Shown here in pieces: positions 32,654 to 45,380 of a stretch of 64,000 nucleotides of DNA. Each line of letters opens with the position of its first letter. The stretch's first letter is position 1. This stretch comes from Aquimarina sp. RZ0 (GTDB lineage Bacteria > Bacteroidota > Bacteroidia > Flavobacteriales > Flavobacteriaceae). Below the pieces are notes generated by a model. That model was not told the origin of the DNA, ran no database searches, and saw nothing but the letters and a program-made list of their open reading frames with translations. The stretch spans positions 1 to 64,000 of the forward strand of contig NZ_VTZU01000006.1 of NCBI RefSeq assembly GCF_008370685.1, read 5' to 3'. A program made the translations under genes and the position numbers.

Positions 32654-33268
32654 ATGAAAAAATTTAAATCAATTATTGTTTTTAGTTTATTAGCTTTTTC
32701 CTTCTCTTGCAGTGAGGATATTACAGAAGACGCAGTAGAAAACACATCAGAAGTAACTATTGAAAAAAGGTTTATGGAGATGCAAGCTGATCCTGAATTT
32801 TTGAAATTTGAAAAGCTGCAAGACGAGCTAATACAAGAAATGTTTGCTATTTTAGAAGAGAACAATATTGCCCCGAATGCGCTATATGATTTCTATAAAA
32901 GTGGTAATTCTAAAAAGATTAATGAGCTTTTTAAAGATCAAAAAATTATCAGGATCAAGGATGAATTAGCACTCGTTACTTCGTATATGCAACGCAATTA
33001 CAATGATATCATAGAAGTTCCTACTCAGGAATTTACTGATAGAACTATCGAGATCGGGCTTCAGAATCTAAAAGACATTGAGAATTATGCTTACATCAAA
33101 AGAAGAGGTTGTAGTTGGAGATATACTCTTTGTGCAGCAGCAGCTACCACAGCATATACGGCTTGTATGGCTACGGTAGGAACGGCAACCGGCGGACTGG
33201 CTGCTCTTGCATGTACCGCTGCATATGCTTATACAATGACGGAGTGTCATCGTAAACACTGTGATTAA
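32654..33268 (+). CDS. Lipoprotein with Cys-rich, bacteriocin-like C-terminal peptide
   Basis: The protein has 204 residues. The lipobox SFSCSED puts a lipid Cys at about residue 19. A helical, charged region (about 30-145) follows, then a dibasic site IKRRG at about 148-152. The last ~53 residues hold six Cys with long Ala/Thr/Gly-rich hydrophobic stretches (CSWRYTLCAAAATTAYTACM, later ALACTAAYAY and ECHRKHCD). The Cys spacing and hydrophobicity resemble the halocin C8-type bacteriocin core, with a leader-like part before it. This is visual likeness, not proof. An alternative is a structural lipoprotein with disulfides. No immunity or exporter gene is adjacent. The stop codon TAA is the first bases of repeat family A. 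Confidence 0.6.
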   Translation: MKKFKSIIVFSLLAFSFSCSEDITEDAVENTSEVTIEKRFMEMQADPEFLKFEKLQDELIQEMFAILEENNIAPNALYDFYKSGNSKKINELFKDQKIIRIKDELALVTSYMQRNYNDIIEVPTQEFTDRTIEIGLQNLKDIENYAYIKRRGCSWRYTLCAAAATTAYTACMATVGTATGGLAALACTAAYAYTMTECHRKHCD

Positions 33269-33433
33269 TACGATTTATAACTAAAAATTTCGCATATTCA
33301 TCGTTTCTTTTTCCTTTCTACTTCGTTTAAAAAATAAACCGTAGCTATAGCTATGCTTGATTTTTTTGCCTTGCATAAAGAAAAAATAATTCAATGAATT
33401 TATACGAATTTTTTAATCACAAATCGTATAAGA
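33266..33433. repeat. Dispersed palindromic repeat family A, copy 1
   Basis: This 168-bp element has outer arms that are imperfect inverted repeats (ATACGATTTATAAC at the left against an inverted version at the right). The left flank 33266-33334 and the right flank (33381-33433) are identical to those of copy 2 (45212-45380). The 26-bp centre 33335-33360 is the exact reverse complement of copy 2's centre, and 33361-33380 differs from copy 2. It starts in the stop codon of the lipoprotein gene. Confidence 0.9.
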
Positions 33434-44813: not shown

Positions 44814-45191
44814 CTATGATATTTTAATTTCCTGTTTAACAAACTTTTGTAATATTCTTTTCATTTTTGATGCTACTAATATATAATCAGGTATTTCTTT
44901 ACCTGTATACAAAAACATAAAAGAGAATTGATGGGTAGTGTGCGGGACAATATACTTATTTTTTCTATAACTCTCTCTTAGCAATCGCTTTATATGATTA
45001 CGATCAACCGCTTTCTTAAAATTTCGTTTGCTGACAGATACTGCTGTCTTAATATCAACTTCTGTATCTGATGTAATTTTTCTATAGATAAGTCGTATAG
45101 GGTATTGAGCAATCGTTTTTCCTTCAGAAAAAAGAAGGTCTATTTCTTTTTTTGATTTGAGCTTTTCTTTTTTTGTAAATGTTGTTATCAT
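44814..45191 (-). CDS. rnpA: Ribonuclease P protein component
   Basis: The protein has 125 residues and is basic. The signature KKAVDRNHIKRLLRESYRKNK is present at about 60-80, holding the RNR-like motif, and the N-terminal LKSKKEIDLLFSEG is typical. It binds RNase P RNA for tRNA 5' maturation. Upstream lies repeat family A copy 2 (within 21 bases), and the Ctp gene is downstream. Confidence 0.93.
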   Translation of the reverse strand: MITTFTKKEKLKSKKEIDLLFSEGKTIAQYPIRLIYRKITSDTEVDIKTAVSVSKRNFKKAVDRNHIKRLLRESYRKNKYIVPHTTHQFSFMFLYTGKEIPDYILVASKMKRILQKFVKQEIKIS

Positions 45192-45211: not shown

Positions 45212-45380
45212 TAATACGATTTATAACTAAAAATTTCGCATATTCATCGTTTCTTTTTCCTTTCTACTTCGTTTAAAAAATCAAGCATAGCTATAGCTAC
45301 GGTTTATTTTTTAAACGAAGTAGAAAGGAAAAATAATTCAATGAATTTATACGAATTTTTTAATCACAAATCGTATAAGA
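45212..45380. repeat. Dispersed palindromic repeat family A, copy 2 (perfect central hairpin)
   Basis: This 169-bp element has flanks 45212-45280 and 45329-45380 identical to copy 1. The 26-bp centre (45281-45306) is the exact reverse complement of copy 1's. A right inner arm (45307-45328) is the exact inverted copy of the left one (45259-45280), giving a 22-bp perfect stem. It lies 20 bases before the rnpA start codon. Confidence 0.9.

What the first reader, a model, noticed from the sequence alone, without database searches (positions are those of the whole stretch)
33266..33433. Repeat family A copy 1: centre exactly inverted relative to copy 2
The 168-bp element here and the 169-bp element at 45212-45380 share identical flanks: left 33266-33334 = 45212-45280, right from about 33382 = from about 45329. 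The 26-bp centre (33335-33360) is the exact reverse complement of 45281-45306. The 20 bases after it (33361-33380) differ from the 22 at 45307-45328, which are instead the inverted copy of the shared left arm. All differences are explained by one event: replication copied the left arm, jumped to the opposite strand, copied centre and left arm backwards, then returned. Copy 1 would be ancestral, as its right inner arm cannot be regained from copy 2. Such a visible template-switch scar in a palindromic repeat is rare to see directly.
Basis: partly seen in the sequence, partly recalled or inferred. Interest (0 to 1): 0.72.

Follow-up and report, generated by a model that had tools for sequence, protein, structure and literature searches.

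The report
Template-switch scar in hairpin transposon
One of about 316 near-identical copies of a 160-base hairpin-shaped jumping DNA in a marine bacterium (Aquimarina) carries an exact inverted patch, the mark left when DNA copying briefly hopped to the opposite strand; the mutation is of a known kind, but the many copies let the before-and-after be read directly.

Summary
Copy 1 (33266-33433) is the intact form of a 160-bp non-autonomous transposon (MITE) with TACGATTT ends, 3-bp TNA target duplications and about 316 copies in this Aquimarina genome. Of 183 full copies read, 106 are identical to it. Copy 2 (45212-45380) is unique: a 70-bp prefix, a 59-bp reverse-complement block and a 52-bp suffix, all exact, joined at AAAAAAT and AAAAA. 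A double template switch explains every difference; because the centre is inverted, a single event must be between strands. Copy 1 is ancestral: 179 of 183 copies keep its centre. The signature, spacer inversion plus arm homogenisation, is already described in yeast. Four smaller patches making one arm match the other were found (three in family A, one in sister family B). Raw reads were not available, so assembly or library error is unlikely but not excluded; a two-step route is possible. Beyond the finding, related ~160-bp hairpins match in 39 of 52 genus genomes sampled and patchily in the order. Their arms covary and G-U pairs lie mainly on one strand, suggesting selection on a single-stranded form. 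No mobilising transposase was found.

The parts
33269..33428 (+). copy 1: intact consensus unit of MITE family A (160 bp, imperfect full-length palindrome, ends TACGATTT..AAATCGTA)
   Evidence: 106 of 183 full copies read are identical to this unit
33266..33268 (.). left target-site duplication TAA of copy 1; also the stop codon of the 204-aa ORF 32654-33268
33429..33431 (.). right target-site duplication TAA of copy 1
45215..45375 (+). copy 2: family A unit (161 bp) altered by a template-switch patch
45212..45214 (.). left target-site duplication TAA of copy 2
45376..45378 (.). right target-site duplication TAA of copy 2
45275..45333 (-). inverted patch in copy 2: exact reverse complement of consensus 33308-33366 (centre inverted; right inner arm replaced by the inverse of the left inner arm)
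45275..45281 (.). microhomology at first switch, AAAAAAT (7 bp)
45329..45333 (.). microhomology at return switch, AAAAA (5 bp)
33335..33360 (+). 26-bp centre, ancestral orientation
   Evidence: 179 of 183 copies keep it within 2 substitutions (exceptions: copy 2 inverted, C182 half rewritten, C124 deleted, L245 with a 3-base insertion)
44820..45191 (-). rnpA (ribonuclease P protein); copy 2 lies just upstream of its start
   Evidence: (PF00825, E 5.4e-19)

Best explanation
Both loci are insertions of one non-autonomous transposon (MITE family A) that spread to about 316 copies by staggered cutting at TNA sites. Copy 2 was later, or on its last move, changed by a short-range template switch. 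The growing strand copied the left arm up to the A-tract, re-paired by 7 bp with the opposite strand of the same quasi-palindrome, copied the centre and left inner arm backwards for up to 59 bases, then returned by 5 bp of homology. This inverted the centre and turned the imperfect inner stem into a perfect one. Shown: the three exact pieces, both microhomologies, ancestry of copy 1, uniqueness of copy 2. Inferred: that it was one event, that it was replication, and that the donor was the element's own other strand rather than one of the other copies.
For: Copy 2 = prefix 70 + inverted block 59 + suffix 52 with overlaps 7 and 5 and no leftover difference. Copy 1 form: 106 of 183 full copies read are identical; the second junction is found once in the whole genome. 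171 of 183 copies have a perfect TNA duplication. In copy 2, 14 of 14 substituted positions become complementary to the partner arm; ordinary substitutions in copies with 1-2 changes do so in 8 of 50 distinct cases, 14% expected from their spectrum. Smaller patches elsewhere: C182:43673, 3 of 3; C173 copy (L161), 3 of 3; C68 copy (L140), 6 of 7, five of them clustered in the right outer arm; one in sister family B (L219), whose patched end is the exact inverse of its own left 24 bp, including that copy's own variant G13A, and not of the B consensus: a donor in cis, or another copy with G13A. Inter-strand: switch point 2 (33366) lies ahead of point 1 (33335), and the mirrored reading also puts it ahead, whereas intra-strand switching needs point 2 behind point 1 (criterion in a passage of PMC8794818). 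Precedent for spacer inversion plus arm homogenisation: PMC8604942 (passages).
Against: No reads, so a chimeric library molecule cannot be excluded; several contigs end inside the element. The two related genomes examined at the copy 2 site (G041, G050) have no element there, so the in-place change cannot be seen at one locus. Two B copies carry an A-family end, so sequence can also be donated by another copy. A homogenised-then-inverted two-step route is possible, though no intermediate was found. No multi-base patch was seen in the family A copies read from G041, another assembly.
Confidence: 0.82

Rival explanations
1. Two steps: first an intra-strand fold-back made the right inner arm the exact inverse of the left; later the centre flipped between the now perfect arms by a second switch or by recombination.
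For: In yeast 9 of 10 reported spacer inversions happened in already perfect repeats (PMC8604942, passages).
Against: No copy with a homogenised right inner arm and uninverted centre was found in the genome (second junction pattern, up to 3 mismatches: copy 2 only). It needs two rare events in one copy.
Confidence: 0.12
2. Non-allelic exchange: the inverted block came from another family A copy (gene conversion or ectopic template switch), not from the element's own other strand.
For: About 316 possible donors (174 hits forward, 142 reverse on the contigs); copies are too alike to name a donor for copy 2; two B elements carry an A-family end.
Against: Joints rest on 7 and 5 bp only, little for homologous recombination (general knowledge); all points lie within 75 bp of one hairpin; in the B copy L219 the patch carries that copy's own variant.
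Confidence: 0.15
3. Assembly or library artefact: a chimeric read or misjoined hairpin.
For: Draft assembly of 259 contigs, several of which end within the element; chimeric by-products of strand-displacement amplification are reported (PMC9484634, title and abstract start in the listing only).
Against: Copy 2 lies inside a 150,096-base contig, not at an end; its joints overlap by only 7 and 5 bp, shorter than assembly k-mers as a rule (general knowledge); other patches with different joints occur at other loci.
Confidence: 0.07

Closest known systems
Inter-strand (intermolecular) template switch with arm homogenisation and spacer inversion, e.g. yeast REG2 (Abraham & Hazkani-Covo 2021, PMC8604942; passages seen)
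   Same: One arm becomes the inverse of the other and the spacer is inverted, explained by two switches
   Different: Here it is in a bacterial transposon, with a 26-bp centre and a 59-bp block, and some 315 sister copies give the ancestral state
Quasipalindrome correction in E. coli (PMC7202029; passages seen; Rosche 1997 seen only as a reference there)
   Same: Imperfect inverted repeat becomes more perfect by templated synthesis
   Different: The reporters in that paper were checked to be specific for intramolecular events; copy 2, with its inverted centre, needs an inter-strand step
Correia element (CREE) of Neisseria, a high-copy MITE (PMC2649163 and PMC10969869, passages seen)
   Same: About 120 to over 250 copies of a short element with terminal inverted repeats and an mRNA stem-loop
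   Different: TNA rather than TA duplication (TA recalled); near-constant ~160-bp full-length hairpin here; sequence relation not tested
IS5-group transposons with short TNA-type duplications (recalled, not from a call)
   Same: 3-bp duplication with a variable middle base
   Different: The transposase loci examined (20 of 26 PF01609 matches, 4 of 4 PF13359 matches, in G000 and G041) are not bounded by TACGATTT ends

Membership tests
MITE (miniature inverted-repeat transposable element) | Terminal inverted repeats | tested here: met
   TACGATTT..AAATCGTA ends; near full-length palindrome
MITE (miniature inverted-repeat transposable element) | Target-site duplication | tested here: met
   171 of 183 copies with identical TNA on both sides
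MITE (miniature inverted-repeat transposable element) | Short, no transposase gene | tested here: met
   160 bp; the two ORFs of 25 aa or more that overlap it are 37 and 33 aa
MITE (miniature inverted-repeat transposable element) | Many dispersed copies | tested here: met
   316 left-arm and 317 right-arm hits, reversed control 0
MITE (miniature inverted-repeat transposable element) | Autonomous parent with the same ends | tested here: inconclusive
   The longest unit bounded by such ends in 3.7 Mb of held sequence (own and related genomes, with overlaps) is 491 bp; only part of the 7.04-Mb genome was held
Short-range template-switch mutation (four-point model) | Derived sequence equals forward, reverse-complement and forward fragments of the ancestor | tested here: met
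   70 + 59 + 52 bp exact
Short-range template-switch mutation (four-point model) | Known ancestral state | tested here: met
   106 of 183 copies identical to copy 1, 179 of 183 with its centre; relatives agree
Short-range template-switch mutation (four-point model) | Confirmed in raw reads | not testable with these tools
   no reads held
REP/RAYT element | 20-40 bp palindrome, no target-site duplication (latter recalled) | tested here: not met
   160-bp length and TNA duplication; REP size from the abstract start of PMC3733652 in a listing

The most novel reading that the evidence does not exclude
The element is a mobile ~160-nt hairpin of nearly fixed length, spread through Flavobacteriales, whose single strand (RNA or single-stranded DNA) must fold for mobility. 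Selection acts on source copies, keeping Watson-Crick or G-U pairs on one strand, while dispersed copies decay neutrally; template switching within copies re-perfects the arms.
Probability: 0.35. Interest if true: 0.8.

Novelty: new member of a known kind. Interest (0 to 1): 0.5.

Why it matters
About 316 nearly identical quasi-palindromes in one genome are a natural reporter for templated mutation: the ancestor is known, each patch can be read base by base, and inter-strand switches can be recognised by the inverted centre. It also shows a way by which hairpin arms in mobile elements may stay complementary while their sequence drifts. The ~160-bp hairpin family itself, with strand-biased G-U pairs and no known transposase, seems undescribed: the search for Aquimarina with miniature inverted-repeat returned 0 papers, and no title or abstract start listed mentions such a family.

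Tried and rejected
Tried without result: (1) autonomous partner. Of 26 PF01609 matches in G000 and G041 the 20 with a locus were examined, and the 4 PF13359 matches found when G000, G041 and G007 were searched; units bounded by such ends and of 60-3500 bp in all loci held at that time reach 491 bp at most. The pair search had an off-by-one error and was redone. (2) Orthologous copy 2 site in G041 and G050: no element there. (3) Rfam at gathering threshold: no match at either copy, only a tRNA at 614-687. (4) Orientation against same-direction neighbours: 37 with, 33 against; no background expectation was computed for the gene context. (5) Multi-base templated patches in the G041 copies read: none seen.

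Rejected: REP/RAYT (length, TNA duplication); mutation bias as cause of the G-U strand asymmetry (distinct recent substitutions at paired positions fall 11 to 11); the C182 copy as an intermediate of copy 2 (it has lost the left half of the centre, which copy 2 keeps).

Dropped or corrected rows: one element with two left-like ends was counted twice (184 became 183) and another (17 became 16). One search dropped one genuine copy by mistake (182, 105 identical); the right numbers are 183 and 106, and the 50 distinct substitutions are unchanged. One search did not orient some loci; one search replaces it and leaves out L365, a duplicate of a training unit. Of 18 relatives' loci, five (L096, L098, L099, L101, L106) were not used because no good ends were found there, and L100 was re-framed by hand. 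Alignment A1 holds 14 of the 15 units (L104, near-identical to L103, left out). The regions asked for were not obtained, so about 133 of about 316 copies were not read in full.

Full report
OBSERVATION. The two elements are as described. Copy 2 equals a 70-bp prefix of copy 1, a 59-bp exact reverse complement of 33308-33366, and a 52-bp suffix, overlapping by AAAAAAT and AAAAA.

WHAT THE REPEAT IS. In one search all 40 candidates scored (of 475) match copy 1 at 100% over 166-168 bases. Patterns for each arm with up to 3 mismatches give 316 and 317 hits in the 7.04-Mb genome, with no hit of the reversed control. I read 183 distinct full copies: 106 are identical over the 160-bp unit and 171 have the same TNA on both sides. 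By sequence, of 184 rows with one element counted twice: TAA 91, TTA 64, TGA 12, TCA 5, one TAC/TAC and 11 unequal pairs. The unit is therefore a transposed element with ends TACGATTT..AAATCGTA. It lies mostly between genes: of 157 sites with callable neighbours, 48 are between convergent genes, 70 between same-direction genes (37 and 33 by orientation), 17 between divergent genes and 22 inside an ORF. The nearest named genomes by a neighbouring protease are Aquimarina; the window's own record is not named. A sister family B of 161 bp shares the ends; 16 distinct copies with both ends were seen in the held part of the genome.

ANCESTRY. The left junction of an inverted centre occurs exactly at two places in the genome. 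The second is not like copy 2: at C182:43673 only the left half of the centre was rewritten from the right half. A hit in G041 with 2 mismatches is not in an element. The second junction occurs only in copy 2. Of the 183 copies, 179 keep the centre in copy 1's orientation within 2 substitutions; the other four are copy 2, the C182 copy, a deletion and a copy with a 3-base insertion. The 13 G041 core matches have copy 1's orientation, as do the closest relatives' units printed (L092-L095). Copy 1 is ancestral.

OTHER PATCHES. Besides copy 2 and the C182 copy, the C173 copy (L161) has A12G A14G C16T, which turns its left outer arm into the inverse of the right. The C68 copy (L140) has five changes that turn its right outer arm into the inverse of the left, plus C104T and C109T, which other copies also have. 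One B copy (L219) has three changes of this kind; its patched right end is the exact inverse of its own left 24 bp, own variant included. Substitutions match the partner in 14 of 14 (copy 2), 3 of 3, 3 of 3 and 6 of 7 cases; the other copies with three or four substitutions match in at most 1. Among 50 distinct substitutions in copies with one or two changes, 8 match, where 14% is expected from their spectrum. One copy (C124, L153) has a 52-bp deletion between AAAAAATAA repeats. Against a purely local mechanism: two B copies bear an A-family end, so donors in trans exist.

MECHANISM. For copy 2 the second template point lies ahead of the first in either reading direction, so a single event cannot be an intra-strand fold-back; it must be a switch to the other strand (criterion from a passage of PMC8794818). 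The signature is described for yeast REG2 (PMC8604942, passages). The single event is favoured because no intermediate was found in the genome, but it is not proven. The smaller patches can be intra-strand. Assembly error is unlikely: copy 2 is inside a 150,096-base contig and its joints have 5-7 bp overlaps. It is not excluded without reads.

BEYOND THE FINDING. Fifteen units from this and other Aquimarina genomes are 159-164 bp long while whole units are often only 60-80% identical. On 14 of them, 56 pairs are predicted; 95.8% of cells are paired and 35 pairs have changes on both sides. None of 500 shuffles reaches these values, and sliding the partners by 1-3 columns gives at most 19 such pairs. 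Two cautions: the structure was derived from these sequences, and they are related to each other.

STRAND ASYMMETRY. The minus strand (relative to copy 1) folds better as RNA in 15 of 15 units. In a strand-neutral pairing of these 15, G-T pairs number 90 on the minus and 31 on the plus strand, with 14 units in favour and 1 tie. In 15 further units not used for the model, five of them outside the genus, the model strand has more G-T pairs in 14 and fewer in 1 (L362), 82 against 30, and folds better in 15; 10 of the 15 have a perfect TNA duplication. Caution: these were picked as top model matches, which favours good folding on the model strand, and L376 is close to family B. Distinct recent substitutions at paired sites fall 11 to 11, so I see no mutation bias that would cause it. 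In copies with one or two changes, 35 of 50 distinct substitutions break a Watson-Crick pair, about what random hits would do (118 of 156 partnered positions are matched), so single copies seem unconstrained. I infer selection on source copies for folding of one strand.

RANGE. A covariance model of the family matches 39 of 52 genus genomes, the own one included (E up to 0.01; at most 56 places scored per genome), and 10 of 148 genomes drawn from the order, the own one included; the other nine are outside the genus, two of them (G184, G063) with a single weak match. Several family A units in G041 are identical to the consensus here, others differ by one or two bases, while the protease-rnpA region is 77% identical, so the element probably moved between species recently.

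LITERATURE. Searches; listings only unless named here. PMC8794818: abstract and passages; PMC8604942, PMC7202029, PMC7954356, PMC10969869, PMC2649163: passages; PMC9769881: abstract. The search for Aquimarina with miniature inverted-repeat returned 0 papers.

Noticed in passing
33266-33268: Copy 1 sits exactly at the TAA stop codon of a 204-aa ORF (32654-33268), so the target duplication restores the stop; 5 insertions have a called gene ending exactly at the duplication.
   Followed up: partly
L048:1252, L154:7768, L116:9615 (G000): Sister MITE family B, 161 bp, same ends and TNA sites; one copy has a family A element nested in it, two are shortened to 119 and 69 bp.
   Followed up: partly
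L185:15001, L250:18827 (G000): Two B elements whose right end is the family A end, evidence of exchange between families.
   Followed up: partly
L349 near 1420 (G041): A family A copy interrupted by another short palindromic element with CCCGCTTTATG..CATAAAGCGGG ends.
   Followed up: no
L158:683 (G000): 288-bp chimera with a family A left part and a different right half ending in TTCACAAATCGTA, TNA duplicated: perhaps a third family.
   Followed up: no
L179:287 and L169:9120 (G000): Units of 322 and 491 bp with TACCATTT ends and TNA duplications, the end type seen in other species.
   Followed up: no
G189, G052, G067, G130: Genomes outside the genus with 11 or more matches to the hairpin model; patchy spread suggests horizontal movement.
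   Followed up: partly
G000 contig ends, e.g. C18:80-121, C53:81, C56:80, C175:82: Contigs start or stop inside the element, so it probably causes part of the 259-contig fragmentation.
   Followed up: no
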